Of a DNA stretch of 40,356 bases, positions 17,280-40,195 are shown piece after piece. Origin of the DNA: Alphaproteobacteria bacterium MarineAlpha9_Bin3 (GTDB lineage Bacteria > Pseudomonadota > Alphaproteobacteria > TMED109). The DNA lies in assembly GCA_002937655.1 (NCBI GenBank), contig PTKH01000013.1:1-40356 (forward strand), written 5' to 3'. The translations under genes and the position numbers were made by a program. Numbering within the stretch: the stretch's first letter is position 1; the number at the start of each line of letters is the position of its first letter. A model generated the notes under the pieces. That model made no database searches, was not told where the DNA came from, and was given only the letters and a program-made list of their open reading frames with translations.

Positions 17280-17280
17280 A

Positions 17281-17811: not shown

Positions 17812-17866
17812 AATTATTTATATTCCTAAATTTTACTTTTTTAAATAATAAATTATCATAATATAC

Positions 17867-17895
17867 TTGAAAGTATTCGTAAGTGATACTATTTA
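17867..17895 (+). promoter_or_regulatory. Predicted promoter of the Gld-type ABC operon
   Basis: TTGAAA (17867-17872), a 17-base spacer and TATTTA (17890-17895) precede the ABC ATPase by about 35 bases. The spacer carries AGTAT...ATACT inverted arms, which could be an operator. A further TGCAA-N7-TTGCA repeat sits in the predicted leader just ahead of the AAGGGA ribosome site. Confidence 0.5.
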
Positions 17896-17930
17896 TGTGC
17901 AATAATTTTTTGCAAAGGGAAATTTAATAT

Positions 17931-18674: not shown

Positions 18675-19408
18675 TGAATACAGTTTTATCAATAACAAAA
18701 AGAGAAATAAGTGGTTACTTTGCTACTCCGGTTGCATATGTATTTATTGTTATATTTTTAATTATGTCCGGTCTGTTTACCTTTTATATGGGAGGCTTTT
18801 ATGAAAGAGGCCAAGCTGATTTAACATCTTTTTTTGAATGGCATCCATGGTTATATTTATTTTTAATTCCGGCTATATCTATGAGGTTATGGGCTGAAGA
18901 AAGAAGAAATGGTACAATAGAATTGTTAATGACTCTTCCTATAAGTACTTCACAGGCAGTATTAGGCAAATTTATTGCTGCATGGTTATTTACAGCTATA
19001 TCTTTAATGCTAACTTTTCCTATGTGGATTACAGTTAATTATCTCGGTAATCCAGATAATGGAACTATTATAGCTAGTTATTTAGGAAGTTTATTAATGG
19101 CAGGCGGATATTTAGCAATTGGTTCCTGTATCTCATCTTTAACAAAAAACCAAGTTATAGCATTTGTTGTTACTATAGCAGTTTGTTTTTTATTTACAGT
19201 AAGCGGTATGCCAATAGTTTTAAATTTCTTTTCTAGCTGGACTCCACAGGCTCTACTAGACACTATTGCTTCATTTAGTTTTATATCTAATTTCACAGAT
19301 TTAACACAAGGTGTAATAGATATTAGAAATATAATATATTTTATATCTCTAATTCTAGCGACTTTGACATTGAATGTCATATCTATCAATTCTAAAAAAG
19401 GGATATAG
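18674..19408 (+). CDS. ABC-2 type permease (GldF-like)
   Basis: A 244-aa six-helix ABC-2 permease. It starts inside the stop of the ATPase gene (TAATG junction), a sign of coupled translation. The text KREISGYFATPVAYVFIVIF and WAEERRNGTIELLMTLPIST is characteristic of the GldF family. The conserved E-rich coupling helix (AEERRNGTIELLM, about 74-86) should contact the ATPase. It is the membrane component of the Gld-type exporter encoded by the operon. Confidence 0.9.
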   Translation: MNTVLSITKREISGYFATPVAYVFIVIFLIMSGLFTFYMGGFYERGQADLTSFFEWHPWLYLFLIPAISMRLWAEERRNGTIELLMTLPISTSQAVLGKFIAAWLFTAISLMLTFPMWITVNYLGNPDNGTIIASYLGSLLMAGGYLAIGSCISSLTKNQVIAFVVTIAVCFLFTVSGMPIVLNFFSSWTPQALLDTIASFSFISNFTDLTQGVIDIRNIIYFISLILATLTLNVISINSKKGI

Positions 19409-19409
19409 A

Positions 19410-26250: not shown

Positions 26251-26327
26251 TTATTTTAATAATTTTATGGACTTTTTTCTTTAAAAAATATCTAATCCCA
26301 TTCTAATAATTTTTATTTGGAAAAAAT

Positions 26328-27398
26328 ATGAGTATTAAACCATATACTGCTGTTGGATTAATTCCAACAGTTAGAGGTATCAGACATAGATCTGATATTA
26401 AACATAATTTAACACATATAAAACATTTAACTAAAGCCGCATCATGGCTTTCTAGTTTGGATATTCCGGTTAGATTAATAGCTGTTCCTGAGGGAGCATT
26501 ACAAGGTTTTAATGACGAAGTATTAGATGCTGAACATGAAGATTTTGCTAAAACATGTTGTATAGATATTCCGGGATGGGAGACAGATATGTTAGGAGGT
26601 ATTGCTAGACAATATAACAGTTATATTATAGCACAAGCTAAGGCTAGACATCCTGATTGGCCTAATAGGTTTTTTAATTGTGGCTTTATTATAGATCCTT
26701 CAGGCGAGGTAATTTTAGTCCATTATAAAGTTTCTCCATTATTTCCAGTAGAACATTCTGTTTGTCCACATGATGTCTATGATTGGTGGATTGAAAAATA
26801 TGGAAATAATTTAGACGCATTTTGGCCAGTTGTAGAAACTGATATTGGAAGATTAGGAATTATGATGGCTAATGAAGGATCTTACCCTGAAAATGCTAGA
26901 GCCTTAGCATTAAATGGAGCTGAAGTAGTATATAGAGCTTCTTATCCTCACCCAGCAACAGGTAATGATATGTTTGAAATACAGAGTAGAGCTAGAGCTT
27001 TAGATAATAATATGTATGTCTTAGCTCCAAATATGGGTACATATTATTTACATAAAGAGGGAGATACACCTATAGATACATTTGGAGGGAGATCTTATAT
27101 AATTGATTATAAAGGTAAAATAGTAGGTAGGCAGGATTATGGTGGTTCTTCTACTTATGTTTCAGGTGTAGTTGATATAGAAGCCTTAAGGTTTCATAGA
27201 GAAAATGCACAATGGGATAATTGGATGAAAGATATTAGAACTGAATTATATCAACTCCTTTATAAGGATCCAATCTACCCAAAGAACTTGTACCTTGATA
27301 GAATTCCTATGAAGCATAAGGAATATAAAACTAAAGTAATTGATAAACAGATAAAATTATTGCAAGATAAAGGTATATGGGTTAAGTCCAAGAAATAA
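26328..27398 (+). CDS. Nitrilase-superfamily protein lacking the catalytic cysteine
   Basis: A carbon-nitrogen hydrolase fold protein of 356 aa. Glu55 (VPEGALQGF) and Lys134 (LVHYKVSP) of the Glu-Lys-Cys triad are present. The nucleophile-elbow segment aligns without gaps (GIMMANEGSYPENAR against the usual GxMICYDxxFPExAR) and puts Ala181 at the cysteine position; the codon is GCT. The downstream NGAEVVYRASYPHP and DNNMYVLAPN parts are normal. A roughly 60-residue C-terminal extension goes beyond the usual 270-300 aa. It may be a non-hydrolytic member, or may use another residue. It is 19 bases upstream of the TrpB2-like gene in one operon. Confidence 0.78.
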   Translation: MSIKPYTAVGLIPTVRGIRHRSDIKHNLTHIKHLTKAASWLSSLDIPVRLIAVPEGALQGFNDEVLDAEHEDFAKTCCIDIPGWETDMLGGIARQYNSYIIAQAKARHPDWPNRFFNCGFIIDPSGEVILVHYKVSPLFPVEHSVCPHDVYDWWIEKYGNNLDAFWPVVETDIGRLGIMMANEGSYPENARALALNGAEVVYRASYPHPATGNDMFEIQSRARALDNNMYVLAPNMGTYYLHKEGDTPIDTFGGRSYIIDYKGKIVGRQDYGGSSTYVSGVVDIEALRFHRENAQWDNWMKDIRTELYQLLYKDPIYPKNLYLDRIPMKHKEYKTKVIDKQIKLLQDKGIWVKSKK

Positions 27399-27417
27399 AA
27401 TTCACAAGGAGAGGTAG

Positions 27418-28836
27418 ATGTTTAAAAAGGGAGAGCAGGATGTACTTTCTGCGTTAGATCAAACTAATTATGAAAATGAAAGAGTAAAAATTTTATTAAA
27501 TGAATATGAGATGCCAACACATTGGTACAATATTTGCTCTGATTTAAAAACCCCACTGGCTCCTCCATTAAATCCTGGAACTGGAGAAGCTATTGGGCCT
27601 GAAGATCTTGCTCCGCTATTCCCAATGGAATTGATTATGCAGGAGGTGAGTACTGACAGGGAAATTGAAATTCCTGACCAGGTTAGAGAAATATATAGGC
27701 AATGGAGGCCAAGTCCCCTTTATAGAGCAAGAAAGTTAGAAAAAGCGTTAGATACACCAGCTAAAATTTATTATAAATACGAAGGAGTAAGTCCTTCTGG
27801 AAGTCATAAACCTAATACAGCAGTTCCACAAGCCTATTATAATAAGGAAGAAGGAGTTAAAAAGTTAACTACGGAAACAGGTGCTGGACAATGGGGTTCT
27901 TCTCTTGCATTTGCTGGTTCAATATTTGGTTTAGAGGTAGATGTTTATATGGTTAAAGTCAGTTTTAATCAAAAACCTTATAGAAGAGCATTAATGGAAA
28001 GTTTTGGTGCTAGATGTGTTGCTAGTCCTAGTAATGAAACAGAATCTGGTAAAGCTATTTTAAAAGATAGTCCCGATAGTACTGGCAGTCTTGGTATTGC
28101 TATATCGGAAGCTGTAGAAATGGCTGCCCAAAGGGATGATACTAAATATGCATTAGGAAGCGTTTTAAATCATGTACTTTTACATCAAACTATAATAGGC
28201 CAGGAAAGTATGAAGCAACTAGAGATTGCAGGTGACGAACCTGATGTGATAGTAGGTTGCACAGGAGGAGGTTCAAATTTTGCAGGTATTGCTTTTCCTT
28301 TTATAGGTAGAAATTTAAGAGGAGAGAGTAAAACAAGAATAGTTGCCGTTGAACCAGCAAATTGTCCTACTCTAACAAAAGGTAAATATGCATATGATTT
28401 CGGCGATACAGGACATTTAACTCCGTTAGTAAAGATGCATACTTTAGGATCAGCATTTGTACCTCCTGGGTTTCATGCAGGTGGTCTAAGATATCATGGT
28501 ATGTCTCCATTAGTTAGTCACTTAGCTAATGAGAATGAAATTGAGTGTACTTCATATAAACAATTAGAATGCTTTGAAGCAGGAGTTACCTTTGCAAAAG
28601 CTGAAGGCATATTGCCTGCTCCAGAAGCAAATCATGCTGTAAAAGGAGCTATTGTAGAAGCTTTAAAAGCAAAAGAAGAGGGAGAAAGTAAGACTATATT
28701 GTTTAATTTATGTGGTCATGGGCATTTTGATATGCAAGCTTATACAGATTATTTTGGAGGAAAGCTAAAAGATCAAGATTATGATGAAAGCGAAGTTGCT
28801 ATGGCTTTAGCAAATTTACCATCTGTATCAGCTTAG
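27418..28836 (+). CDS. TrpB2-type tryptophan synthase beta-like PLP enzyme
   Basis: A 472-aa pyridoxal-phosphate enzyme of the TrpB2 branch, which lacks the loops that bind TrpA. Schiff-base Lys131 lies in [11 protein letters not shown], catalytic Glu153 in [11 protein letters not shown], the phosphate-binding loop is [10 protein letters not shown] and the C-terminal region has CGHGHFDM. The long N-terminal part ([23 protein letters not shown]) is typical of TrpB2. Known members condense indole with serine or salvage indole. No trpA or trpC is nearby, so an accessory or alternative beta-replacement role is likely. AAGGAGAGG before the ATG is a strong ribosome site. Confidence 0.9.
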
Positions 28837-29603
28837 TTATTATTTAAAAAATTATAAATTTTGTTCGCAATTTCTTTTGGATATTGTGAATGAGGACTAT
28901 GTCCACAGTTTTCTAGCTCATATCTTTTTATAATTCCTTTAGAATTATTTTCTATACTTTCAATTTGTTTGATTGTTCCGTATGTGTCCTGTTTTCCTTG
29001 AATTAATAAGATAGGGCAGTAAATTTTATCTAGATAGTCTTCTATATTCCAATAATAAAATTCTTTAGACAACCAAGCATTACACCAACCATTAAATGCT
29101 CCGTATGGATCTTGATGATATTTTTTAAGTTTATCTTTTAAATTACTGTTATCCCATAATTTTTTAGCATCTCTTATTCCTTTAATGGAAATGTCTTCTA
29201 CAAATACATGAGGAGCTTCTAGAATCATTGATTTTACTTTATTTCCACTACCAGCATAAATTAATGCTATTGAAGCTCCATCGGAATGTCCTAGTAAAAT
29301 AGGAATTTTAATATTTAAAAAATTTAAAATTTTTGGTAGATAATATATTGCTTCTTGATGCATATAGTTAGTTTTTCTAGGTTTATTTAATGCTGAAGAG
29401 TTCCCCATACCAACTCTTGAGTAAATAATTACATCACGTTTTGTCAAATTATAAATTTCATTCGGAAAATTCTTCCATAATGCTATTGAGCCAAGACCTT
29501 CATGTAAGAAAATTATAGGCTCTAAAGTAGAATTTTTATGAATAAGAGATTTGATTTCAATCTTGTTATCATCAATTATTAGATAATCGTTTATTTCATT
29601 CAT
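28833..29603 (-). CDS. Alpha/beta hydrolase of the benzoyl-CoA cluster
   Basis: A 256-aa alpha/beta hydrolase: FLHEGLGSI oxyanion loop, nucleophile elbow GHSDGASIA (Ser near residue 108), Asp in QGKQDTYGT and His in NCGHSPHSQ. It overlaps the end of the benzoate-CoA ligase gene by 8 bases and is the third gene of the flavodoxin-ligase-hydrolase operon. Similar hydrolases are found in other box clusters. A role as a thioesterase or ester hydrolase that frees aromatic acid or CoA is plausible but inferred. It converges on the TrpB2 gene with a 4-base overlap. Confidence 0.82.
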
Positions 29604-31125
29604 TATTTGTTCTTAATTTAAATCTTTGTATTTTTCCTGTAGCTGTTTTAGGAAGCTCATCTACAAATTCATACCAGCGCGGGTATTTAAATGGTGTTAA
29701 TTGCTTTTTAACATGGTTTGTGAGATCAAGTTTTATATTCTCTAATTTTTTTGAATTAGTTTTCAGTATTATATAAGCTTTTGGCTTAATTAAATTATTA
29801 TTATCTCTATTTGCTACAACTGCAGCTTCCAAAACTTCTTCATGTGTTTGTAAAGCAGCTTCAACCTCAAAAGGAGATACATATTGCCCAGAAACCTTCA
29901 TCATATCGTCAGCACGTCCACAATAAGTATAAACACCATTTGAGTCACGAATATATTTATCACCAGTTTTTGTCCATTCACCTTTAAATGTTATAGAAGT
30001 TTTTTCTGGTTTATTCCAATATGAGCTTGCACTGGAAGGCCCTTTTATTTCCAACTCAGCAATTTCATTATCATTTGCTACTTTTCCATCATCATTAATA
30101 AGCCTCGCTTCATAACCTTGTACTGGCTTACCAGATGCCCCAGGAGTAATATTTTCAATTGTATTTGAAATAAATATATGAAGCATTTCAGTAGAACCAA
30201 TTCCGTCTAGTACCTGTACTCCTAAAAAATTATACCATTTTTCATATAAATTTGCAGGAAGAGCTTCTCCTGCTGAAACAGATAATCGTAAGGATTTAAA
30301 TAGGTCTGAGTTTATTTGCGCATTTAATAATGCAGCGTAAAGAGTAGGAACTCCAAAAAATAATGTAACAGATTGTTTGTTTATAATATTTGACACCGAT
30401 TCTGGAGTTGGTCTATCTGCCATTAGCACAGATGTAGCTCCAACACTCATAGGAAATGTAAGCGCGTTTCCAAGCCCATATGCAAAAAATAATTTTGCTG
30501 CTGAAAAGCAAATATCATTTTCAGTTATACTTAATACTGTTTTTGCATAATTATCTGATGTTGCAATTAAACTTTTATGCATATGAAGAGTTCCTTTAGG
30601 AGATCCTGTAGAACCAGAGGAATATAACCAAAAAGCTATATCATCACCATATGAATTGTATGGAGTTTCCTTATATTCTATAGTCTGATTAATTAAACTT
30701 TTTAAATCATTATTATTATTTAAAATAATTAAAATATCATCATTTTTATCAATTATGGGTGTAAATTTATCAATTAAGTGTTCTGATATAATTACAGCTT
30801 TTGCATCTGAGTCTTCAATCATATATTTGTAATCTTTACTAGGTAGCAAAGTATTTATACAGATCGGAATAATTCCTGTCCAAATTAGGCCTAAAAATAC
30901 TATGGGGTAGGATATATTATCGTCCATACAAATTATAACTCTATCGTTAGCATGAATATTTTTATTTGTTATAGAATATGAGAAAGCCTTAACTTTAAGA
31001 TAAAGGTCATTGTATGTAATTTCTTCATTATTATCTATAAAAGCTATTTTATCTGGGTTTTTAATGATATTTCTGCTTAAAAGATCGTATGCTGCATTAT
31101 ATTTTTTGTTTTTAATTGAGGCCAT
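29596..31125 (-). CDS. Benzoate-CoA ligase
   Basis: An ANL-family acyl-CoA ligase of 509 aa that would activate benzoate to benzoyl-CoA using ATP. The P-loop-like motif is YSSGSTGSPKG (168-178). The substrate-site region AKLFFAYGLGNALTFPMSVG (about 210-228) and FFGVPTLYAALL are diagnostic of benzoate/4-hydroxybenzoate-CoA ligases. The hinge and A8 motif read GRADDMMKVSGQYVSP, and the A10 lysine Lys498 sits in KTATGKIQRFK. The start is 1 base after the flavodoxin stop. Clustering with boxB, boxC and boxR makes benzoate the likely substrate, though ring-substituted analogues are possible. Confidence 0.93.
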   Translation of the reverse strand: MASIKNKKYNAAYDLLSRNIIKNPDKIAFIDNNEEITYNDLYLKVKAFSYSITNKNIHANDRVIICMDDNISYPIVFLGLIWTGIIPICINTLLPSKDYKYMIEDSDAKAVIISEHLIDKFTPIIDKNDDILIILNNNNDLKSLINQTIEYKETPYNSYGDDIAFWLYSSGSTGSPKGTLHMHKSLIATSDNYAKTVLSITENDICFSAAKLFFAYGLGNALTFPMSVGATSVLMADRPTPESVSNIINKQSVTLFFGVPTLYAALLNAQINSDLFKSLRLSVSAGEALPANLYEKWYNFLGVQVLDGIGSTEMLHIFISNTIENITPGASGKPVQGYEARLINDDGKVANDNEIAELEIKGPSSASSYWNKPEKTSITFKGEWTKTGDKYIRDSNGVYTYCGRADDMMKVSGQYVSPFEVEAALQTHEEVLEAAVVANRDNNNLIKPKAYIILKTNSKKLENIKLDLTNHVKKQLTPFKYPRWYEFVDELPKTATGKIQRFKLRTNNE

Positions 31126-31126
31126 T

Positions 31127-31588
31127 TTATAATTGTTCTTTAATATTTTTTGTAAACCATTCTAAGGCTACTTCTTCCGGTAAACTTCCATCTGAAGCAT
31201 CATGATAGAATGGATCACCTATCTTAGTTGCATTAAGAGAATCTAGCAAATCAGAAAACTTTTTTCCTCCATATGCAAAAGTATCTCTGTATGTCATATC
31301 ACCTAATCCGAATAATGCATATCTAATATGGCTTAGGTCAGGAGATAATTCTTTCAATTTATTATAAAAATCTTGAGCACTATCTGGAACATCTCCTTGG
31401 CCGTAAGTAGAAGAACATATTAAAACCGGATTATTTGCATTAATTAAGATATCTACATCAGCATTGTCTATTTCGATAATATCTGTATCTAAATTATTTT
31501 CATTACAATATTCTGCTATATCCTCAGCTGCCATAAGTGCTGTTCCAGTCATAGTAGCCACTAAAATTAAAAGTTTTCCAGAGTCCAT
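31127..31588 (-). CDS. Flavodoxin-like FMN protein, candidate electron donor to BoxB
   Basis: A 153-aa free-standing flavodoxin domain of the MioC/CPR-like type. The FMN phosphate loop is ATMTGTAL (11-18), the 50s loop SSTYGQGDVP (59-68) and the 90s loop FGLGDMTYRDTFAYGGKK (93-110). There is no NAD(P)H domain, so it needs a separate reductase. It is first in the operon with benzoate-CoA ligase. The usual BoxA reductase (FAD plus ferredoxin domains) is not in the window, and BoxB needs electrons for its diiron centre, so this flavodoxin may replace or supplement BoxA. The family call is firm; the partner is inference. Confidence 0.88.
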   Translation of the reverse strand: MDSGKLLILVATMTGTALMAAEDIAEYCNENNLDTDIIEIDNADVDILINANNPVLICSSTYGQGDVPDSAQDFYNKLKELSPDLSHIRYALFGLGDMTYRDTFAYGGKKFSDLLDSLNATKIGDPFYHDASDGSLPEEVALEWFTKNIKEQL

Positions 31589-31624
31589 AAAAAATTCCTT
31601 ATTAAAAAAGTTTACATTTTAAAT

Positions 31625-31648
31625 ATATATGCATTATAATGCATATAT
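31625..31648. promoter_or_regulatory. Perfect 24-bp palindrome, candidate BoxR operator with divergent promoters
   Basis: The palindrome is centred on TGCATTATAATGCA (31630-31643), i.e. TGCA-N6-TGCA, extended by ATATA/TATAT arms to 24 bases. TGCA repeats are the known recognition element of BzdR/BoxR regulators. On the plus strand TTTACA (31611-31616), an 18-base spacer and TATAAT (31635-31640) place the -10 of boxR inside the operator core. By symmetry the flavodoxin-ligase operon can use a TATAAT on the other strand. Binding here would repress both directions. Confidence 0.78.
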
Positions 31649-31676
31649 TATTTATCATCTGTTATGAAAGTTGTAA

Positions 31677-32570
31677 ATGAATAATATACAGGAATATAAA
31701 AATAATATTTTATTAGAACCATCAAATCCTAATAAAGAGGATGATGAAAACAATATAGGTTTGCTTGTTAAAAAATATCGACTCAAAAGAGGTATGACTC
31801 GCCAAGTTTTAGCTAATAAATCTGGAATCTCTCTGAGGTATTTAGCTCAATTAGAAAGTGGAAAGGGAAACCCAACGGTATCTATAATTTCTAATATCTC
31901 ACATGCATTAAATCTATCTTCCTATGAGTTTTTTTATAATGAAAAAAATATCATTGATACGGATTTGCTTGATTATAGGTTTAAGAGTTTCAATTCTAAA
32001 CAAAAAAATAAAGTTTTTGAACTCATAAACAAAATGTATAACGAAAATAAGTATAAAAAAAGTAAGAATAAGATCGCTTTTATAGGGTTAAGAGGAGCAG
32101 GAAAGTCAACTCTAGGTAATATGTTACATGAAGAGTTTTCTTACCCTTTGTATGAAGCAACCAACGAAATAGAGAAATTAGGAGGCATGAATATAAATGA
32201 AATTATTGAACTGGGTGGTCAAGGTATGTATAGGCGTTTTGAATTTGATGTAGTTAAATACTTATTTGAAAATCATAGTAAATTAATTCTTCTTGCAGGT
32301 GGCAGTATAGTTTCAGAGGATAAGACTTATAATTATGTTTTAAATAATTATTTTACTATCTGGATTAAAGCTAGTCCTAGTGAACATATGCAAAGAGTAT
32401 TAAACCAAGGGGACTCACGACCAATGAGTTCTAACCCTAGAGCTATGGATGACTTAAATAATATATTAAATGAAAGAATAGCACTATATTCAAAGGCAGA
32501 TTTAATAATTGATTCTGAAAATAGGAGTGCAGAAGAAGCATACAAAGATTTAAAGACTAAGTTAGTTTAA
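31677..32570 (+). CDS. boxR: BoxR/BzdR-type regulator: XRE helix-turn-helix fused to shikimate-kinase-like domain
   Basis: A 297-aa regulator. The XRE helix-turn-helix spans about residues 28-82 (RGMTRQVLANKSGISLRYLA and GNPTVSIISNISHALNL), a linker covers about 90-130, and a shikimate-kinase-like domain has Walker A GLRGAGKST (137-145) and the AGGSIV and DSRPM segments. In BzdR/BoxR the kinase-like domain binds benzoyl-CoA instead of shikimate and releases the DNA. The gene lies between two TGCA-N6-TGCA operators, which fits autorepression and control of both box operons. The sequence ahead of the ATG has only a weak ribosome site (GAAAG). Confidence 0.93.
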   Translation: MNNIQEYKNNILLEPSNPNKEDDENNIGLLVKKYRLKRGMTRQVLANKSGISLRYLAQLESGKGNPTVSIISNISHALNLSSYEFFYNEKNIIDTDLLDYRFKSFNSKQKNKVFELINKMYNENKYKKSKNKIAFIGLRGAGKSTLGNMLHEEFSYPLYEATNEIEKLGGMNINEIIELGGQGMYRRFEFDVVKYLFENHSKLILLAGGSIVSEDKTYNYVLNNYFTIWIKASPSEHMQRVLNQGDSRPMSSNPRAMDDLNNILNERIALYSKADLIIDSENRSAEEAYKDLKTKLV

Positions 32571-32571
32571 T

Positions 32572-32602
32572 TTGATATTTTTAAATAGTGCATTATATTG
32601 CA
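32572..32602 (+). promoter_or_regulatory. boxCB promoter with candidate BoxR operator over its -10
   Basis: TTGATA (32572-32577), a 16-base spacer and TATATT (32594-32599) form a promoter beginning immediately after the boxR stop. The -10 lies inside TGCATTATATTGCA (32589-32602), a second TGCA-N6-TGCA element like the one before boxR. A GGAGG ribosome site follows, then boxC at 32619. Repression by occlusion of the -10, relieved by benzoyl-CoA, is the obvious model. Confidence 0.75.
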
Positions 32603-32618
32603 TATACTGGAGGTAACT

Positions 32619-34268
32619 ATGATAACTTTTGAAAGAGAACCTGATAGCTATAAACATTGGAAAGTAGAGATTAAAAATAATAAGGCTACTTTATTTTTGG
32701 ATGTTTCTGAGAAGGATGGAATAAAACCAGGTTATGATTTAAAACTTAATTCTTATGATTTAGGTGTAGATATTGAGTTAAATGATATAGTGCAAAGAAT
32801 AAGATTCGAACACCCAGAAGTTAAGGTAGTTGTGATAACTTCAAGTCAAGAAAAAAACTTTTCGGCTGGAGCCAATATATACATGTTAGGTCAATCTGAA
32901 CATACTTGGAAAGTTAACTTTTGTAAGTTTACCAATGAGACCCGAAATGGTTTTGAAGATTCTAGTGAATCTGGGTCTATAAAATTTATAGCTGCAGTGA
33001 ATGGTATTTGTGCTGGAGGAGGTTATGAAGTAGCTCTGGCATGTGATGAAATTTTACTTATAGATGATAGGTCAAGTACAGTGAGTTTGCCTGAAGTTCC
33101 TCTCTTAGGAGTTCTTCCTGGAACTGGTGGAGTAACCAGATTAATTGATAAAAGAAAAGTAAGAAAAGACCTTGCTGATATTTTTTGTACAAATGCTGAC
33201 GGTGTAAGAGGTAAAAAAGCTGTTGATTGGAAATTAGTTGATTTTATAGCTCCTCCTTCAAAGTTTAATGACCTTATAGAAGACAGAGTGTCTGAAATGA
33301 CTAAAAAGGTAAAATTACGCGATGGTAAAGAGGGGATTAAACTTAACAAACTTAATAGAAGTATTACTAATGAAGGTATAAATTATGATTTCTTAAAAGC
33401 TAAGATCAATAGAGAAGATAGGATAGCTAATATTCATATAATGGGACCTAATTCAAATGATGTATTAAATCTTGATGAAATATTAAAAAAAGGAAGCGAT
33501 TGGTGGCCGCTAAAATTTGCGAGAGAATTAGAGGATCTTATTCTATTATTAAGAACCAATGAATTAGAGGTAGGAGTTTTAACGATAACCTCAGAGGGAA
33601 GTGCTGATGATATTTTAGGTGTTACTTCTCTATTAGAAGATAATAAAGATGTGTGGTTTATGAACGAAATAATAGGCTTGCTAAGAAGAACTTTATCTCG
33701 ATTAGACTTATCTTCTAGATCTATATTTACAATAATTGATAATGATAGTTGTTTTTCAGGTCTTTTGGCAGAGTTGTTATTTGTTGCAGATAGAACTTAT
33801 ATGCTAAATAATTCCATGTCACCTGACGGCCTTAAAGGTCCTTTTATAACATTAAGTAATATCAATTTTTCTTCTTTAGAGATGGTAAATGGTTTATCTA
33901 GACTTGCTACTAGATTTAATAATGATGAATCAAAATTAAGTACATTACGTAATATTGTTGGTGAATCTTTAAATGCTGAAAGAGCATTTGAAGAAGAATT
34001 AATTACGGTCATTCCGGATGATTTAGATTGGAATGATGAAATTAGGCTTAGCGTTGAGGAAAGAACAAGTTTTTCACCTGATGCTTTGACAGGTTTAGAG
34101 GCTAATTTAAGATTTCCTGGTAAAGAAACATGTGAAACTAAAATATTTGGAAGATTAACTGCATGGCAAAATTGGATTTTCAATAGACCTAACGCTGTGA
34201 GTGAAGAGGGGGCCTTAAAATTATTTGGTACTGGCTCCAGAGCTAAATTTGATAATAAAAGGGTATAA
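32619..34268 (+). CDS. boxC: Benzoyl-CoA-dihydrodiol lyase (2,3-epoxybenzoyl-CoA hydrolase) BoxC
   Basis: BoxC cleaves the ring of 2,3-epoxybenzoyl-CoA with two waters, giving 3,4-dehydroadipyl-CoA semialdehyde and formate. The 549-aa protein is a crotonase-superfamily enzyme of the long BoxC type. Oxyanion loops are FSAGANIYML (81-90) and NGICAGGGYEVALACDE (128-144), followed by SLPEVPLLGVLPGTGGVTRL; Glu137 and Glu159 are candidate acids. I use the ATG at 32619, behind GGAGG. An in-frame TTG at 32598 lies inside the operator and is unlikely. boxB follows after 2 bases. Confidence 0.95.
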   Translation: MITFEREPDSYKHWKVEIKNNKATLFLDVSEKDGIKPGYDLKLNSYDLGVDIELNDIVQRIRFEHPEVKVVVITSSQEKNFSAGANIYMLGQSEHTWKVNFCKFTNETRNGFEDSSESGSIKFIAAVNGICAGGGYEVALACDEILLIDDRSSTVSLPEVPLLGVLPGTGGVTRLIDKRKVRKDLADIFCTNADGVRGKKAVDWKLVDFIAPPSKFNDLIEDRVSEMTKKVKLRDGKEGIKLNKLNRSITNEGINYDFLKAKINREDRIANIHIMGPNSNDVLNLDEILKKGSDWWPLKFARELEDLILLLRTNELEVGVLTITSEGSADDILGVTSLLEDNKDVWFMNEIIGLLRRTLSRLDLSSRSIFTIIDNDSCFSGLLAELLFVADRTYMLNNSMSPDGLKGPFITLSNINFSSLEMVNGLSRLATRFNNDESKLSTLRNIVGESLNAERAFEEELITVIPDDLDWNDEIRLSVEERTSFSPDALTGLEANLRFPGKETCETKIFGRLTAWQNWIFNRPNAVSEEGALKLFGTGSRAKFDNKRV

Positions 34269-34270
34269 AA

Positions 34271-35701
34271 ATGACAAATTTAAACTATCAAGAAAAAATT
34301 CCTAACAATGTTGATCTCAGTACTGATTTATCTTTACAAAGAGCATTGGAACATTGGCAACCAAAATTTAAAAATTGGTGGACTGAAATGGGTCCTGAAG
34401 GTTTTCAAGCCTCCGATGTTTATTTGAGGACTGCTACATCTGTAGACGCAGATGGTTGGGCAACGTATGGTAAGGTGAAGATGCCTGAATACAGATGGGG
34501 CATATTTTTAAATGATAAAGTAGAAGATAGAAAAATTCATTTTGGTGATAATATTGGTGCACCTGTTTGGCAGCAGGTTCCAGGTGATTATCGATCAATT
34601 CTAAGAAGACTCATAGTAACACAGGGAGACACTGAGCCTGCTTCTGTAGAACAACAGCGAGAGTTAGGTAAAACATGTCCATCATTATTTGATTTAAGAA
34701 ACCTCTTTCAGGTTAATGTTGAGGAAGGTAGACACCTATGGGCTATGGTTTATTTATTGCATGCATATTTTGGAAGAGATGGAAGGGAAGAAGCAGAAGC
34801 TTTATTAGAGAGAAACTCTGGAGACATTGATAATCCCAGGATACTTGGTACATTTAATGAGCCAATTACGGATTGGGTAAGTTTTTTTATGTTTACCTAT
34901 TTTACGGATAGAGATGGTAAATATCAGCTCAAATCTCTAGCAGAAAGTAGTTTTGACCCGCTTGCAAGAACATGTCAATTTATGCTTACTGAAGAGGCTC
35001 ATCATATGCAAGTTGGTGAAACTGGAATTACTAGAATGATACAGAGAACACTTGATGTTATGAATAAATTAAAAACAGATTCTATTGAAGCTGTTAGAAA
35101 TGCAGGCGCTATAGATTTACAAACTATTCAAAGATATATAAATTTTTGGTTTTCTTCATCTTTAGATTTATTTGGATCAGAGATTTCATCTAATTCAGCA
35201 ACAGCTTTCGCTAATGGTTTAAAAGGAAGGCCAGATGAAATGAGATATGAAGATCATTCCGAAAAGAACTCAACATTTACTTTTGAAGGTCTATCAATAA
35301 AAAATACTATTGAAACACAAACTATACCTATGAGGAATGCTATGAATGAGATAACCAGAAGGGCATACGTTACTGACTGTGAAGTTGGGTTAAAAAGATG
35401 GAATAGGATTATAAAAAAAGCAGGCCATGATATTCAATTAAAATTACCTTCAACTAGATTTAGAAGAAATATAGGTATATGGGCAGGTGTTGATGTTAAT
35501 CCTGAAGGTAAAATTTTAGAAAAAAGTGATTTTGATGCTCAAGTTGCTTCTTGGTTACCTTCTGATCAAGATAAAGAATTTATTAAAAGCTTAATGGTAC
35601 AAGTTGTAGAAGTTAATAAAACTGCCGGTTGGATTGCAGCTCCTAGCAGAGGCATAAATAATATGGACATAGGCTTTGATTACGTAAATTTAAAATCTTA
35701 A
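34271..35701 (+). CDS. boxB: Benzoyl-CoA 2,3-epoxidase subunit B (BoxB)
   Basis: BoxB is the diiron oxygenase that epoxidises benzoyl-CoA with O2. The 476-aa protein keeps the pattern Glu122 (GDTEPAS), Glu152-x-x-His155 (EEGRHLWAM), Asp213 (YFTDRDG) and Glu242-x-x-His245 (EEAHHMQVGE). Each is shifted by +2 from the Azoarcus evansii ligands as I remember them. The 5' end PNNVDLSTDLSLQRALEHWQ is typical. It ends 1 base before the convergent livF stop. Its reductase partner BoxA is not in the window. Confidence 0.96.
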   Translation: MTNLNYQEKIPNNVDLSTDLSLQRALEHWQPKFKNWWTEMGPEGFQASDVYLRTATSVDADGWATYGKVKMPEYRWGIFLNDKVEDRKIHFGDNIGAPVWQQVPGDYRSILRRLIVTQGDTEPASVEQQRELGKTCPSLFDLRNLFQVNVEEGRHLWAMVYLLHAYFGRDGREEAEALLERNSGDIDNPRILGTFNEPITDWVSFFMFTYFTDRDGKYQLKSLAESSFDPLARTCQFMLTEEAHHMQVGETGITRMIQRTLDVMNKLKTDSIEAVRNAGAIDLQTIQRYINFWFSSSLDLFGSEISSNSATAFANGLKGRPDEMRYEDHSEKNSTFTFEGLSIKNTIETQTIPMRNAMNEITRRAYVTDCEVGLKRWNRIIKKAGHDIQLKLPSTRFRRNIGIWAGVDVNPEGKILEKSDFDAQVASWLPSDQDKEFIKSLMVQVVEVNKTAGWIAAPSRGINNMDIGFDYVNLKS

Positions 35702-36397
35702 TTATATGCCTATCCATTCTTTGTGATAGGTTATATTTTTTTTAAATTCATTTTTTGTTCCGTTCCATTTTGTTTCACCTTTACCAATAATAGAGATTTC
35801 ATTAGCTATCTCTAGAGCCATATTTACGTTTTGCTCTACTATTAAAAGTGAAATATTTTCACTAAGTATTCTTTTTAATATTTCCACAAGTTCTAAAACA
35901 ATATTTGGTGCAAGGCCCTGAGTAGGCTCATCTAAAAGTATAAGCTTTGGATTAGTTAGAAGTGCTTTACTTATAGCAAGCATTTGTTGTTCTCCTCCTG
36001 ATAGACTTATCGAATTATTTTGAAGTTTAGATTTTAATTGTGGAAATGACTCTAATACTCTTTCAATATTCCATTTATTATTATTATTATTAATTATATT
36101 TAGACTTTCAATTACAGTTAGTGAAGAAAACATACCTCTATTTTCAGGCACCATAGTAAGACCTTTTTCAGCAATTTGATACGTAGATAAACCTTTTAAT
36201 TTTGTATCTTTAAAAATAATTTCTCCAGAAGATGGTTTTGTTAAATTTACAATAGAACGTAAGGTAGTGGATTTTCCAGCTCCATTTCTACCCAATAAAG
36301 CTAAACAACCAGGTTTATCTAAATTTAAATTAACACCCTGTAAAATATGACTTTTTCCATAGTAAGTATTTAAATTTTTAATATTAAGTATAGACAT
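35702..36397 (-). CDS. Branched-chain-type ABC importer ATPase, LivF-like
   Basis: A 231-aa ABC ATPase of the LivF group. It has Walker A LGRNGAGKST, the Q-loop region VPENRGMFSSLTV, signature LSGGEQQML, Walker B LILLDEPTQGLAP and the H-loop replaced by LIVEQN as in the LivF/LivG group. It is the last gene of the five-gene HAAT operon, 7 bases after the LivG-like ATPase. The gene converges on boxB with no intergenic base. HAAT importers next to aromatic-acid genes often carry benzoate-type ligands, so aromatic uptake is a reasonable inference. Confidence 0.92.
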   Translation of the reverse strand: MSILNIKNLNTYYGKSHILQGVNLNLDKPGCLALLGRNGAGKSTTLRSIVNLTKPSSGEIIFKDTKLKGLSTYQIAEKGLTMVPENRGMFSSLTVIESLNIINNNNNKWNIERVLESFPQLKSKLQNNSISLSGGEQQMLAISKALLTNPKLILLDEPTQGLAPNIVLELVEILKRILSENISLLIVEQNVNMALEIANEISIIGKGETKWNGTKNEFKKNITYHKEWIGI

Positions 36398-36404
36398 ATA
36401 TATA

Positions 36405-37139
36405 TTAAATCCCTAAGTAAACTTTTTGAACTAATTCAGAATTTTTTACTGCATTAGGACTACCTTCAAATATTAACTTACCTCTATCTAAAACATAAAT
36501 TTTATCAGCTAAGTTATATATTACCTCCATGTCATGCTCTACTATTATAATTGAATATTCTTTAGAAAGTTTTTTGATTAAATTAATTATATCTTTAGTT
36601 TCTGCTGGACTCATACCTGCTGTAGGTTCATCCAATAAGAGTAATCTAGGATTGCAAGCAATAGCTATTCCAAGTTCTAACTGTCTTTGCAGACCATAAG
36701 ATAAAAATTCAGATTTAATATCTAAATAGTTTTGAAGGCCTATATCTTTTGCTATCTTGATAGCATCTTCAGAAATAAAATTGTTCTTATATAATGGTTT
36801 GATAAAATTAAATGAAACCTTATATTTATGGCTGCATGCAATCATTAGACTTTCTTTAACTGTCATTTCTAAAAACAAAGAATTCTTTTGAAAGCTTTGA
36901 GATATACCTAATCTTGCTCTTTCTTCAACATTTAGTGCATTTACACTCTTACTATTAAATTCTACATAACCATTATCTTGTTTTATTATTCCAGAAATTA
37001 CTTTAAATAAAGTACTTTTCCCTGCACCGTTTGGTCCAATAATTGCCAAGCATTCTTTCTTTTCAGATGTGATATTTATATCTTCTAATACAATAGTAGA
37101 TCCAAATGATTTATTTATATTACTTAATTTTAATATCAT
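36405..37139 (-). CDS. Branched-chain-type ABC importer ATPase, LivG-like
   Basis: A 244-aa ABC ATPase. It has Walker A IGPNGAGKSTLF, the LivG-typical GISQSFQKNSLFLEMTV Q-loop region, signature LSYGLQRQLELGIA, Walker B LLLLDEPTAGMSP and the H-loop IIVEHDMEVI. It differs from its LivF partner in the usual places; the two ATPases form a heterodimer under the LivH/LivM-type permeases. It lies 1 base after the LivM-like gene. Confidence 0.92.
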   Translation of the reverse strand: MILKLSNINKSFGSTIVLEDINITSEKKECLAIIGPNGAGKSTLFKVISGIIKQDNGYVEFNSKSVNALNVEERARLGISQSFQKNSLFLEMTVKESLMIACSHKYKVSFNFIKPLYKNNFISEDAIKIAKDIGLQNYLDIKSEFLSYGLQRQLELGIAIACNPRLLLLDEPTAGMSPAETKDIINLIKKLSKEYSIIIVEHDMEVIYNLADKIYVLDRGKLIFEGSPNAVKNSELVQKVYLGI

Positions 37140-37140
37140 T

Positions 37141-38097
37141 TTAAGAACTACATTTCTTTTTTATACGTTCTATTAATCCCCATAGTCCATCTTGCATAAA
37201 TAATACTACTAATATAAATCCAAAACCAATCACTAACATCCACCAATTAATAATATTTGATAATTCATGTTGAATTATATGAACTACTGAAGCACCTAAT
37301 ATAGCTCCAGAAATTGATCCTATTCCTCCAACTATAATCATAATTAATCCTTCACCAGATACTGTCCAATGAGTAAGTTCAGGAGAAATAAATCCATTTA
37401 ATTGAACATATAATGATCCAGCCAAAGATGCTATACCTGCAGAAATACTAAATGCTATAGCTTTATATGTCTTTTTATATGCTCCTATTGCGGATGCTCT
37501 ATCACTGTTCTGCCTAATAGCATCTAAATTTCTACCAAGAGGAGCATCAGTGACCTTAGAAATTAAAAGATAAACTATAACTAGCCAGAATATGGTGTAA
37601 AATGAAAAAATTAATGGTTGATTTAGATCTATGTAAAAAGAAGATAGATCTGGTCTAAGTATACCAGTTATTCCATCAGATCCTCCTAATAATTCTGAAG
37701 TAAATACCCAGGCATGAAACATTTCTCCTAAAGCTAATGTTACCATTATAAAAAATATTCCATCTAATAATACGATAAAATAACCTATTATTAGAGCTAT
37801 AAATAGACCAATAATAATAGAGAAAAACATGGAATAGAAGGGAGGTATTCCGTAATTAGTGGAAAGTACAGCAGTTGCGTAGGCCCCAATACCTAAGAAC
37901 ATTGCATGACCTAGAGAAACCATTCCTCCTCTTGAGGCAATAAAATCTAAACTAATAGCAAAAATAGATAAAATTGTTATTTCTGCTATAAAAAATCTAG
38001 TAAAATAACCACCAAATATATTAAATATAATTGATAAAAGAACTAGAATTACCATTACTTGAAGTCTTAATTTAGGATTATAATTAACTGCTCTCAT
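37141..38097 (-). CDS. Branched-chain-type ABC importer permease, LivM-like
   Basis: A 318-aa inner-membrane permease with eight to ten helices. The LivM signature SRGGMVSLGHAMFLGIGAYATA lies split around residues 54-75, and GGIGSISGAILGASVV near residue 255 is the coupling region. It starts at the last base of the LivH-like stop (1-base overlap). It forms a heterodimer with the LivH-like protein. Confidence 0.92.
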   Translation of the reverse strand: MRAVNYNPKLRLQVMVILVLLSIIFNIFGGYFTRFFIAEITILSIFAISLDFIASRGGMVSLGHAMFLGIGAYATAVLSTNYGIPPFYSMFFSIIIGLFIALIIGYFIVLLDGIFFIMVTLALGEMFHAWVFTSELLGGSDGITGILRPDLSSFYIDLNQPLIFSFYTIFWLVIVYLLISKVTDAPLGRNLDAIRQNSDRASAIGAYKKTYKAIAFSISAGIASLAGSLYVQLNGFISPELTHWTVSGEGLIMIIVGGIGSISGAILGASVVHIIQHELSNIINWWMLVIGFGFILVVLFMQDGLWGLIERIKKKCSS

Positions 38098-38945
38098 TAT
38101 CTCTTAAACAATCCATCAGGTCTAAATAATAGAGTTAATGCCATTACAGCATATATTATTATTTGTGCTAATTGCGGAATATATACTTTACCAAAACTAT
38201 CAACGAAACCAATTAATAAGGCTCCTACTATAGCTCCTTTTAAGCTTCCAGGTCCACCCACTACAACCACAATTAAAGTAAGAACTAAGACTTCCATATC
38301 CATTCCTGGCTCTACTCCCAATATTGGAGCTACTGTTATACCCGCGAGTCCAGCTAAACCACACCCAAGTGAGAATGTGTAAAATAAAATTTTATCTGTG
38401 TTAATTTTAAGTAGTCTGGCTGCTTCAGGATCATCTACAGATGCTCTTACTTTTGCACCTATAACAGTTTTTTCTAAAATAAAATATAAACAAAATAAGA
38501 CAAATATACCAACAAAAATTACAAACAATCTATATGAGGGGTAGGGGTCATTAATTAAAATAATCGACTTTGATAGTAATTCAGGAGCAGATATAGAATG
38601 ACTCATTGTACCCCAAATTAGTCTTACTGAGTCTAAACCAATGTAAATTAATCCAAATGTAAGTAATACTTGTTTCATAGGGTCAGCATTTTGAATATGC
38701 TTAAATAAAATATTATATAAAAATGCACCAATTAGCGCAGTAATTAATGGAGAAAAAATAAGAGCTAACCAAAAAGAATCAAAATAACTCCATATGGATA
38801 AACCAATATATGCTCCAATCATATAAAGGCTGCCGTGAGCTAAATTAACAATTTTCATTAATCCAAATATTATGGTTAGACCAACGGCTAATAAAAATAA
38901 CGTCATGCTAAATTGTAGTGCGTTAAGAAATTGAATTAATAACAT
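38097..38945 (-). CDS. Branched-chain-type ABC importer permease, LivH-like
   Basis: A 282-aa inner-membrane permease. IFGLMKIVNLAHGSLYMIGAY near residues 26-46 and GGPGSLKGAIVGALLIGFVDSF near residues 230-251 are the LivH signatures, and VRASVDDPEAARLLKI is the cytoplasmic coupling segment. It is second in the operon, 10 bases after the binding-protein gene. Confidence 0.93.
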   Translation of the reverse strand: MLLIQFLNALQFSMTLFLLAVGLTIIFGLMKIVNLAHGSLYMIGAYIGLSIWSYFDSFWLALIFSPLITALIGAFLYNILFKHIQNADPMKQVLLTFGLIYIGLDSVRLIWGTMSHSISAPELLSKSIILINDPYPSYRLFVIFVGIFVLFCLYFILEKTVIGAKVRASVDDPEAARLLKINTDKILFYTFSLGCGLAGLAGITVAPILGVEPGMDMEVLVLTLIVVVVGGPGSLKGAIVGALLIGFVDSFGKVYIPQLAQIIIYAVMALTLLFRPDGLFKR

Positions 38946-38955
38946 AAGTTATAGC

Positions 38956-40143
38956 CTAAATATTACATTTTTTACCAGGAGCCTTAACAGCTTTTATTGT
39001 GTCTAAAACTTTTAATTCGGGACCTTTCTCTCCAGCTATTACTTCAAATATATATATATTCTGTATTACATTATTTGTTTTTTTATCAATAGTTAGAGGT
39101 CCTCTTGGTCCATTTATTGAAACTGTTCTAATTGCTTCAGCAAGATTATCTTTATTTGTTACATCCCCAGATAAGGATTTTATAGCTTCAATTATAACTT
39201 TACCAGAATCATAGCCCTGTACCGCAAATTCAGAAGGAATTCTTCCGAATTTACTTTTATATGAGTTTATAAATATCTTATTTGCTTCAGTATCAATTGA
39301 TGGAACATAATTTAAACTTCCAATAAAGCCAATTGCAGCATCTTTTTGCGCAGGAAGAAATAATGGAGATGTAGTCCATCCTGCCCCAGTGAGCTTCATT
39401 ACTTTGGATAAACCAAACGAATGCGCTTGTTTTATGAAATTTATAGCTTCTCCACCTGCATAAAATACATAAACCGCATCTGCTCCACTTTCTTTAACTC
39501 TAGCTAAATAAGGTCCAAAATCTTTTGTTTTTCGAAATGGAGTGTATTCTTCACCTAATATTGCACCACCAGCTTCTGTAAATTTCTCTTTAAATGCATT
39601 CATCATTTCTTTTCCAGCAGCATAATTGGGAGCCAATAAAAAAGCAGTTTTAATACCTTGATTAGCTAGCCATGATCCCATAGGAGCATTAATTTGGTAG
39701 TTAGAGAATGAAATTCTAGTTATAAATTTAGAGCATTTTTCATCAGTTAATACATTTGCTCCAGCATTAGGTATTATTAATGGAGTTTTTGTTTGGACAA
39801 CAATATCACGTAAAGCTAGTGCAACCGATGAAGAAACTGGTCCTACTAAAATATCTACTTTATCTGACGAAATTAATTTTCTACTTTTTTGTAAGGCTAT
39901 ATTTGGTTTTACTTCTGTATCACCCTTAATAATTTCAATAGTATTACCATTTATTTTATTACCTATCTCATCGAATGCTAAAGACATTGCATTTGTAATT
40001 TCTTCTCCCAATACGGTGTAAACCCCTGAGTATGGAAGCAAGGTTCCAATTTTTATAATATCTTTAGAATAAGATATTGAAGATGAATATACTGAAAAAA
40101 GTATAATAAATATGAATCTAAAAAAGATATTTTGTGTATTCAT
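38956..40143 (-). CDS. Periplasmic binding protein of a branched-chain-type ABC importer
   Basis: A type I periplasmic binding protein (LivJ/LivK, ANF-like fold), 395 aa with a signal peptide (about 1-26, ending SSSISYS). The mature start DIIKIGTLLPYSGVYTVLGEE is typical of HAAT binding proteins, as are VDILVGPVSSSVALALRDIV and GFIGSLNYVP. The ligand cannot be read from sequence. Position next to the box cluster suggests an aromatic acid such as benzoate; an amino acid is equally compatible with the family. I chose the ATG at 40143, which gives a clean signal peptide behind a GGGGAC-type ribosome site; the frame to 40188 adds an unlikely leader. Confidence 0.92.
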   Translation of the reverse strand: MNTQNIFFRFIFIILFSVYSSSISYSKDIIKIGTLLPYSGVYTVLGEEITNAMSLAFDEIGNKINGNTIEIIKGDTEVKPNIALQKSRKLISSDKVDILVGPVSSSVALALRDIVVQTKTPLIIPNAGANVLTDEKCSKFITRISFSNYQINAPMGSWLANQGIKTAFLLAPNYAAGKEMMNAFKEKFTEAGGAILGEEYTPFRKTKDFGPYLARVKESGADAVYVFYAGGEAINFIKQAHSFGLSKVMKLTGAGWTTSPLFLPAQKDAAIGFIGSLNYVPSIDTEANKIFINSYKSKFGRIPSEFAVQGYDSGKVIIEAIKSLSGDVTNKDNLAEAIRTVSINGPRGPLTIDKKTNNVIQNIYIFEVIAGEKGPELKVLDTIKAVKAPGKKCNI

Positions 40144-40174
40144 TTTTTGTCCCCATAAACATAAGTTAATACTT

Positions 40175-40195
40175 TTAAAGTAATACATACTTTAA
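40175..40195. promoter_or_regulatory. Palindromic operator candidate 1 before the ABC importer
   Basis: TTAAAGTA (40175-40182), a 5-base spacer and TACTTTAA (40188-40195) are perfect inverted arms 32 bases upstream of the binding-protein start. An adjacent ACTTT (40171-40175) adds a third half-site. A second copy of the core lies 62 bases away. The site would sit over or near the leftward importer promoter. Confidence 0.5.

What the first reader, a model, noticed from the sequence alone, without database searches (positions are those of the whole stretch)
31127..35701. Box (aerobic benzoyl-CoA) cluster with a flavodoxin in the place of BoxA
The sequence shows benzoate-CoA ligase, BoxR, BoxC and BoxB with intact diiron ligands, but no BoxA reductase in the window. 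A free-standing flavodoxin is the first gene of the ligase operon and is controlled by the same operator region. From the known pathway, BoxB needs electrons from BoxA (NADPH, FAD, Fe-S). A flavodoxin recharged by a general reductase would be a different electron supply for benzoyl-CoA epoxidation, perhaps also one that saves iron in the sea.
Basis: partly seen in the sequence, partly recalled or inferred. Interest (0 to 1): 0.75.

Follow-up and report, generated by a model that had tools for sequence, protein, structure and literature searches.

The report
Flavodoxin replacing BoxA in benzoate breakdown
Many alphaproteobacteria, marine ones among them, seem to power the oxygen-using step of benzoate breakdown with a small flavin protein instead of the iron-sulfur reductase known from model bacteria; gene order across many genomes supports this, but it has not been tested at the bench.

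Summary
The window carries abH-bclA-flavodoxin diverging from boxR-boxC-boxB, with all six diiron ligands of BoxB and TGCA-N6-TGCA sites before flavodoxin/boxR and before boxC. No boxA passes its cut-off in the window's genome (96% complete) or in any of 28 family genomes. The flavodoxin sits at the box cluster in 13 of 13 small-genome family members with boxB. Among 114 box loci it occurs in 31 and BoxA in 20, never both. In 385 sampled Alphaproteobacteria, close relatives of the flavodoxin occur in 32 of 81 boxB genomes and 4 of 304 others; 67 of the 81 lack boxA. Its best solved relative is cindoxin, the flavodoxin that feeds a P450. In eight flavodoxin loci of three other families an FprA/adrenodoxin-reductase-like gene follows boxB; the window's genome has one elsewhere. 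Best reading: NADPH, FprA-like reductase, flavodoxin, BoxB. Against it: 38 boxB genomes have neither BoxA nor this flavodoxin; three have both; four have the flavodoxin without BoxB; the BoxA/flavodoxin split needs only two changes on the BoxB tree; no biochemistry was possible. The iron-saving idea is untested. New variant of a known pathway.

The parts
28833..29603 (-). alpha/beta hydrolase (abH), third gene of the flavodoxin-ligase run; same place as the predicted 3-hydroxyadipyl-CoA lactone lactonase of betaproteobacterial box divergons
   Evidence: PF00561; overlaps the ligase by 8 bases; lactonase role from passages of PMC6449761
29596..31125 (-). benzoate-CoA ligase (bclA)
   Evidence: TIGR02262 663 bits, cut-off 375
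31127..31588 (-). MioC/YqcA/cindoxin-type flavodoxin, first gene of the ligase run, proposed electron donor of BoxB
   Evidence: PF00258; best PDB match cindoxin 4oxx E 3.6e-20; conserved neighbour of box genes
31630..31643 (.). TGCATTATAATGCA, BoxR-type operator between flavodoxin and boxR
   Evidence: TGCA-N6-TGCA as main BoxR/BzdR motif from passages of PMC6449761
31677..32570 (+). boxR, XRE/shikimate-kinase-like repressor
   Evidence: PRK08154 290 bits; HTH_3 + SKI
32589..32602 (.). TGCATTATATTGCA, second BoxR-type site, at the start of the boxC ORF
32598..34268 (+). boxC, 2,3-epoxybenzoyl-CoA dihydrolase (ORF from TTG; the in-frame ATG at residue 8 is the likelier start)
   Evidence: TIGR03222 815 bits, matched from residue 9
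34271..35701 (+). boxB, diiron benzoyl-CoA 2,3-epoxidase, all six iron ligands present
   Evidence: TIGR03225 736 bits; alignment to 3per; ligands
35702..40188 (-). livF, livG, livM, livH, livK: branched-chain-type ABC transporter, probably for benzoate
   Evidence: ORFs; Peripla_BP_6 for the binding protein; beside boxB in the genera nearest to the window; gene names by homology among loci, substrate inferred

Best explanation
The flavodoxin is the dedicated one-electron carrier of BoxB in this box cluster and stands in for the NADPH-dependent iron-sulfur flavoprotein BoxA. Benzoate (or benzoyl-CoA) derepresses BoxR; the flavodoxin is made together with benzoate-CoA ligase and the hydrolase from one arm of the divergon, BoxC and BoxB from the other. 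A separate NADPH-dependent flavoprotein, most likely the FprA/adrenodoxin-reductase-like protein on contig C14, reduces the flavodoxin; the reduced flavodoxin docks on BoxB and delivers two electrons, one at a time, to make the diferrous site that activates O2 and epoxidises benzoyl-CoA; BoxC opens the epoxide. Shown: gene content, order, operator-like sites, ligands, absence of boxA over cut-off, recurrence of the pairing. Inferred: the electron transfer itself, the identity of the reductase, the regulation.
For: BoxB is the only enzyme of the flavodoxin operon and the box divergon that needs outside electrons (pathway knowledge; passages of PMC5489048 and PMC4498308). No boxA over cut-off in the window's genome or in 28 family genomes, 20 of which have boxB; the same model finds it in 13 of 76 other boxB genomes of the class, so detection works. 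abH-BCL-flavodoxin diverges from the box genes in 13 of 13 boxB genomes of the small-genome genera, also in the two that lack boxR there (L103, L107). 12 of 12 named close relatives show it. Rescan of 114 loci: flavodoxin 31, BoxA 20, both 0; 13 of the 31 are from the window's family. Class sample: 32 of 81 boxB genomes against 4 of 304 others hold a flavodoxin of 202 bits or more, Fisher p=2e-20, relatedness not corrected; in 26 of the 29 that lack boxA it was seen beside box genes. Best solved match is cindoxin, electron donor of P450cin through an NADPH reductase (PMC9687028 passages). FprA-like gene on the boxB strand, -1 to 2112 bases after boxB, in 9 loci, 5 of them within 20 bases; 8 of the 9 with flavodoxin, none with BoxA. 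It is present in 26 of 29 BoxA-less flavodoxin genomes against 3 of 11 with BoxA only and in the window's genome on C14. BoxA acts transiently and in minor amounts (PMC4498308 passages), so a diffusible carrier could replace it.
Against: 38 of 81 boxB genomes have neither BoxA nor a flavodoxin of this kind, and so have all seven genomes of genus g8 in the window's own family, so BoxB can evidently live on other donors; 26 of these 38 also have the FprA-like protein, which is thus not tied to the flavodoxin. Three genomes hold both BoxA and such a flavodoxin. Four genomes without boxB keep a flavodoxin-abH pair beside aconitase. Among BoxA-type and flavodoxin-type rows the BoxB tree needs two changes and the paired test has no power. 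In the window's genome the FprA-like gene lies before an acyl-CoA dehydrogenase with no TGCA-N6-TGCA site in its locus, and 5 of 8 family genomes without boxB have it too. No biochemistry.
Confidence: 0.72

Rival explanations
1. BoxB is reduced by the genome's BenC/PaaE-like 2Fe-2S-FAD reductase (contig C27) or by a housekeeping ferredoxin, and the flavodoxin does something else.
For: The C27 reductase is the only PF00175-type reductase found in the window's genome and resembles BenC and PaaE; a ferredoxin-like protein is present; 38 of 81 boxB genomes run without BoxA and without this flavodoxin.
Against: The C27 reductase has its own diiron neighbour (PaaA-like) in a gentisate cluster. 6 of 13 flavodoxin-bearing family genomes show no PF00175 reductase at all, though these six are 54 to 88% complete.
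Confidence: 0.17
2. The flavodoxin serves the ligase or hydrolase arm, or a repair or stress role, and not BoxB itself.
For: A flavodoxin-abH pair persists without BoxB in 4 of 304 boxB-negative genomes and away from the box cluster in two BoxA-type genomes, G222 and G314.
Against: Neither CoA ligases nor alpha/beta hydrolases are redox enzymes (family knowledge). The box-free copies nest beside box-linked ones in the flavodoxin tree (support 88 and 96), so they look like remnants. A related flavodoxin faces a PaaA-like diiron gene in 4 of 5 loci read, pointing to the diiron enzyme as the partner.
Confidence: 0.08
3. boxA exists in the genome but falls in an assembly gap.
For: The genome has 72 contigs and is 96.4% complete.
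Against: 0 of 28 family genomes have boxA over cut-off, ten of them at least 90% complete and at most 5% contaminated; classical boxA lies directly after boxB (Mycetohabitans), where the window reads through without it.
Confidence: 0.03

Closest known systems
Classical Box pathway (BoxA-BoxB-BoxC, Azoarcus/Burkholderia type; Mycetohabitans rhizoxinica plasmid cluster as annotated example)
   Same: Same ligase, hydrolase, BoxR, BoxC, BoxB, same divergon and the TGCA-N6-TGCA type of site
   Different: No BoxA after BoxB; a flavodoxin is added as first gene of the opposite arm
Cindoxin / cindoxin reductase / P450cin system
   Same: A MioC-type FMN flavodoxin that serves one oxygenase; it is the window protein's best PDB match (PMC9687028 passages)
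   Different: Here the presumed partner is a diiron CoA-ester epoxidase, not a haem P450; the reductase candidate is of the FprA/adrenodoxin-reductase family and is unlinked in the window's genome
E. coli MioC and YqcA
   Same: Same flavodoxin family (the name YqcA for 2m6r is recalled)
   Different: Those are housekeeping flavodoxins (recalled); this branch tracks box genes
PaaABCE phenylacetyl-CoA epoxidase with PaaE reductase
   Same: Diiron CoA-ester epoxidase homologous to BoxB (PMC4498308 passages)
   Different: PaaE is a 2Fe-2S-FAD reductase; no such protein is linked to the window's boxB

Membership tests
Box (aerobic benzoyl-CoA) pathway | BoxB over curated cut-off with diiron ligands | tested here: met
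Box (aerobic benzoyl-CoA) pathway | BoxC and benzoate-CoA ligase over cut-off in the same cluster | tested here: met
Box (aerobic benzoyl-CoA) pathway | BoxA reductase (NADPH, FAD, two 4Fe-4S) | tested here: not met
   none over cut-off in the genome or its 28-genome family. The cluster works like a Box pathway minus BoxA; it is filed as a variant, not as the classical type
Box (aerobic benzoyl-CoA) pathway | BoxR with TGCA-N6-TGCA operators | tested here: met
   motif from PMC6449761 passages; binding itself not testable
Box (aerobic benzoyl-CoA) pathway | BoxD aldehyde dehydrogenase | not tested
   none seen among ORFs of window 20000-40356; 1-20000 and the genome were not searched for it
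MioC/YqcA/cindoxin-type flavodoxin | Flavodoxin domain with conserved T-x-T-G-T, TYGxG and GLGD loops | tested here: met
   (roles of the loops in FMN binding are recalled)
MioC/YqcA/cindoxin-type flavodoxin | Passes a curated equivalog cut-off | tested here: not met
   PRK08105 96.7 of 160 and MioC 87.3 of 158 bits: same family, not an ortholog of either
Cindoxin-like dedicated oxygenase donor | Reduces the neighbouring oxygenase | not testable with these tools
   needs purified proteins
FprA/adrenodoxin reductase family (candidate reductase, contig C14) | Similarity to FprA or adrenodoxin reductase over most of its length | tested here: met
   1lqt FprA E 5e-71, residues 5-365 of 426; 1cjc adrenodoxin reductase E 1.3e-69, best stretch 4-213

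The most novel reading that the evidence does not exclude
In Alphaproteobacteria a branch of cindoxin-like flavodoxins has become the dedicated, iron-free electron donor of CoA-ester diiron epoxidases in general: one subfamily replaces BoxA for BoxB, a sister subfamily replaces PaaE for a single-subunit PaaA-like epoxidase in paa-type clusters, both recharged by FprA-type reductases; BoxA would then be a lineage-specific option and not a defining part of the Box pathway.
Probability: 0.45. Interest if true: 0.8.

Novelty: new variant of a known kind. Interest (0 to 1): 0.68.

Why it matters
BoxA is treated as part of the definition of the Box pathway, and clusters that lack a BoxA or BoxB gene have been set aside as incomplete (PMC10803450 passages). 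In the class sample 67 of 81 boxB genomes lack boxA. A linked flavodoxin would explain 29 of those 67, would widen the count of organisms that degrade benzoate aerobically, would give a diiron arene epoxidase fed by a flavodoxin, and makes a clean biochemical test possible. It also raises an open question: what feeds BoxB in the 38 genomes that have neither.

Tried and rejected
Gene calling: a first greedy ORF call in high-GC loci hid several genes; the counts of flavodoxin, BoxA and FprA-like genes used here come from HMM rescans of all six frames.

FprA-like gene regulated with the box genes in the window's genome: rejected, no TGCA-N6-TGCA site in its locus L310, and an acyl-CoA dehydrogenase follows it.

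Anti-correlation of BoxA and flavodoxin at genome level: weak (p=0.15); the tree-based paired test had no power. Both are reported as they are.

BoxB residues that separate BoxA-type from flavodoxin-type: several found, but the numbering printed there is shifted by 3, the ligand line printed there is wrong for that reason (mended), and the pattern follows the tree; no claim is made.

Plasmid records gave no flavodoxin-type box cluster: best flavodoxin identity 42% with the copy of L204 as query; at E<=1e-60 BoxB only in 11 records of Mycetohabitans, Nonomuraea and Embleya. Nonomuraea (L344) shows BoxB and BoxC but no match to the BoxA or flavodoxin model within 10 kb.

Literature: no held paper has flavodoxin, boxA, boxB and benzoyl-CoA together (0 papers). 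Of 727 papers I saw the list of 25. One search listed nine papers with three of benzoyl-CoA, flavodoxin, boxB, epoxidase; two hold all four (PMC12008989, PMC9765128), and the passages I saw do not link the flavodoxin to BoxB. The two primary BoxB papers are not held. This says nothing about papers outside the library.

No structure was predicted and no complex modelled.
Full report
WHAT IS THERE. The window holds a box divergon without boxA. On the minus strand run flavodoxin (31127-31588), benzoate-CoA ligase (29596-31125) and an alpha/beta hydrolase (28833-29603), with one base between the first two and an 8-base overlap between the last two; on the plus strand run boxR, boxC and boxB; a branched-chain-type ABC transporter follows on the minus strand. 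Family models confirm ligase, BoxR, BoxC and BoxB over their cut-offs. The six iron ligands listed for Azoarcus BoxB in PMC5489048 (passages) are present at E122, E152, H155, D213, E242 and H245 and are kept in the 114 aligned BoxB rows (one row has a gap at E122). TGCA-N6-TGCA, the main BoxR motif according to PMC6449761 (passages), occurs only twice in the window, before flavodoxin/boxR and at boxC (8 of 100 shuffles also reach two).

NO BOXA. The curated BoxA model finds nothing over cut-off in the window's genome and nothing in any of 28 genomes of the family, of which 20 have boxB. The same model finds BoxA in 13 of 76 other boxB-positive genomes of the class and in two of four named genomes, beside boxB, so it works. 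A fourteenth, G256, is cut by its contig end at 416 bits and is counted as BoxA-positive below.

THE PAIRING RECURS. In the window's family the flavodoxin is found in 13 of the 20 boxB genomes, always as hydrolase-ligase-flavodoxin facing the box genes (13 of 13). G003, without boxB, has two weak matches (55 and 56 bits), one in a 611-residue frame. In two of the 13 (L103, L107) boxR is missing, yet the flavodoxin remains. The seven boxB genomes without it are all one genus with larger genomes (g8). All 12 named close relatives show the arrangement (L068-L079); of the 16 more distant named loci (L080-L095, some cut by contig ends) none has the flavodoxin and 6 have BoxA.

Over the class I sampled 385 genomes; 81 have BoxB over cut-off. 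Three more have sub-threshold matches and are counted as boxB-negative; one of them, G336, is probably a boxB cut by a contig end. Neighbourhoods of boxB from these, from the family and from named records, 114 loci in all, were rescanned in six frames: flavodoxin in 31, BoxA in 20, both in none. The models used there were built from members of the same loci, some genomes give two loci, and 13 of the 31 are from the window's family. With a 17-row flavodoxin alignment (A1) the 385 genomes give 36 with a match of 202 bits or more; the next match has 180. 32 of the 36 have boxB, that is 32 of 81 boxB genomes against 4 of 304 others (Fisher p=2e-20, not corrected for relatedness). Of the 29 boxB genomes with this flavodoxin and without BoxA, 26 were seen to have it beside boxR, ligase or boxC, sometimes at a second site away from boxB (L298-L302); in three (G383, G306, G213) it lies about 13 to 15 kb from boxB on the same contig and its neighbours were not read.

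RESULTS AGAINST. At genome level the flavodoxin is found in 3 of 14 BoxA genomes (G222, G314, G091) and 29 of 67 BoxA-less ones, not significant. 38 of 81 have neither. Four genomes have the flavodoxin without boxB, with an alpha/beta hydrolase and beside aconitase. In the flavodoxin tree these four sit next to a box-linked copy, that of G331 (support 88), which is of the same family as three of them; the fourth, G107, is of another family, its copy lies on a 3.3-kb contig and differs from that of G242 at two residues, so it may be misbinned. The copies of G222 and G314 sit next to the box-linked copy of their own genus (96). These look like remnants after loss or exchange of a box cluster. 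On the BoxB tree of the 51 BoxA-type and flavodoxin-type rows the two separate with two changes: the donor goes with the BoxB subtype. With the 63 rows that have neither nearby, flavodoxin adjacency needs 9 changes and BoxA 5; some of these 63 have the flavodoxin elsewhere or end at a contig end. Four families (f42, f65, f80, f82) contain both types, so whole modules seem to move between relatives, but the number of independent exchanges is too small for a test. Locus-level exclusion must be read with that in mind.

WHAT THE FLAVODOXIN IS. It belongs to the MioC/YqcA group without passing an equivalog cut-off. Its best solved relative is cindoxin, E 3.6e-20; with the alignment, flavodoxin 2m6r (YqcA, recalled), cindoxin and MioC lead. 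Cindoxin carries electrons from an NADPH reductase to P450cin (PMC9687028 passages). A dedicated flavodoxin for an oxygenase therefore has a precedent.

WHAT REDUCES IT. On the boxB strand after boxB in nine loci of four families (f66, f61, f80, f57) lies a gene whose solved relatives are FprA and adrenodoxin reductase, at -1 to 2112 bases, within 20 bases in five (the PDB comparison was made with the copy of L198). Eight of the nine also have the flavodoxin; none has BoxA. The ninth, L226 of family f57, has no flavodoxin match in its genome at E<=1e-12. The window's genome has one such protein, 324 bits, 41% identical to the query, on contig C14. Among the 13 flavodoxin genomes of the family, 11 have it in full, G011 in part at a contig end, and G017 (54% complete) not; none of the seven g8 genomes has it; 5 of the 8 family genomes without boxB have it too, so it is not box-specific there. 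In the class sample it is present in 26 of 29 BoxA-less flavodoxin genomes, 26 of 38 with neither, 2 of 3 with both and 3 of 11 with BoxA only. Its frequency in boxB-negative genomes of the class was not measured. In the window's genome it sits before an acyl-CoA dehydrogenase with no TGCA-N6-TGCA site in its locus, so its role there is inferred. The only PF00175-type reductase found in the genome is the BenC-like protein on C27, and 6 of 13 flavodoxin genomes of the family show none (these six are 54 to 88% complete).

A PARALLEL CASE. A second, lower-scoring flavodoxin group (128 to 153 bits, ten places) was looked at in five genomes. In four (L286, L287, L289, L290) it faces a PaaA-like diiron gene (385 bits or more with a model built from two of them; 65 and 57 bits with curated PaaA for L286 and L290, cut-off 280) followed by a crotonase-type gene; in L287 come PaaI, a 3-oxoadipyl-CoA thiolase and PaaK over their cut-offs. 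In the fifth, L288, no such diiron gene was found. In the flavodoxin tree this group is separate from the box-linked ones. Whether these genomes also have PaaABCE was not tested. It suggests that flavodoxin-fed diiron epoxidases may not be limited to BoxB.

MECHANISM AND ITS LIMITS. [quoted passage not shown] The proposed chain NADPH, FprA-like reductase, flavodoxin, BoxB contains no iron before BoxB (cofactors from family knowledge), whereas BoxA carries two 4Fe-4S clusters (same passages); an iron saving follows on paper. The arrangement also occurs in genomes of 3 to 7 Mb whose habitats I could not see, so the marine explanation is neither shown nor excluded.

WHAT IS KNOWN. PMC10803450 (passages) sets clusters that lack BoxA or BoxB aside as incomplete with an undefined lower pathway, naming an alphaproteobacterium (Ferrovibrio terrae K5) and, for missing BoxA, the chromosomal copy of P. 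xenovorans LB400. I found no held paper that links a flavodoxin to BoxB (searches, of which I saw the lists; passages). The primary BoxB papers are not held.

VERDICT. Observation confirmed. Interpretation supported by comparative genomics in its core, open in its chemistry, unsupported in its ecological gloss.

Noticed in passing
L023 (contig C27 of the window's genome), 7103-13391: A second aryl-CoA cluster: CoA ligase, thioesterase, gentisate 1,2-dioxygenase (534 bits, cut-off 442), a 235-aa PaaA-like diiron protein (88 bits, cut-off 280), SDR and a BenC-like 2Fe-2S/FAD reductase; looks like CoA-ester hydroxylation on the way to gentisate.
   Followed up: partly
L286, L287, L289, L290: A sister flavodoxin faces a PaaA-like diiron gene, in L287 within a paa-type cluster, as if a flavodoxin stood in for PaaE.
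   Followed up: partly
L096-L102 and many loci: 38 of 81 boxB genomes of the class sample have neither BoxA nor this flavodoxin; what reduces BoxB there is unknown.
   Followed up: partly
L295, L296 (G222, G314): Genomes with a BoxA-type box cluster keep a flavodoxin-abH pair elsewhere (beside an NnrU-like gene in L295), while a genome of the same genus (G108) has a flavodoxin-type box cluster: likely exchange of a whole module.
   Followed up: partly
window 25180-28836: Iso_dh, nitrilase/amidase-family and TrpB2-like genes lie beside the box cluster in conserved order in three genera of the family; their link to benzoate is unclear.
   Followed up: no
L231 (G385): A single-contig 8 Mb genome whose BoxB falls among BoxA-type ones yet has no BoxA over cut-off.
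   Followed up: no
L241 (G091): BoxA lies between a BoxB gene and a second BoxB piece, and this BoxB branches with a flavodoxin-type one; a flavodoxin is on another contig.
   Followed up: no
L226 (G375): The FprA-like gene follows boxB by 4 bases although no flavodoxin of this kind was found in the genome; a peroxiredoxin-like gene (named by eye) comes next.
   Followed up: no
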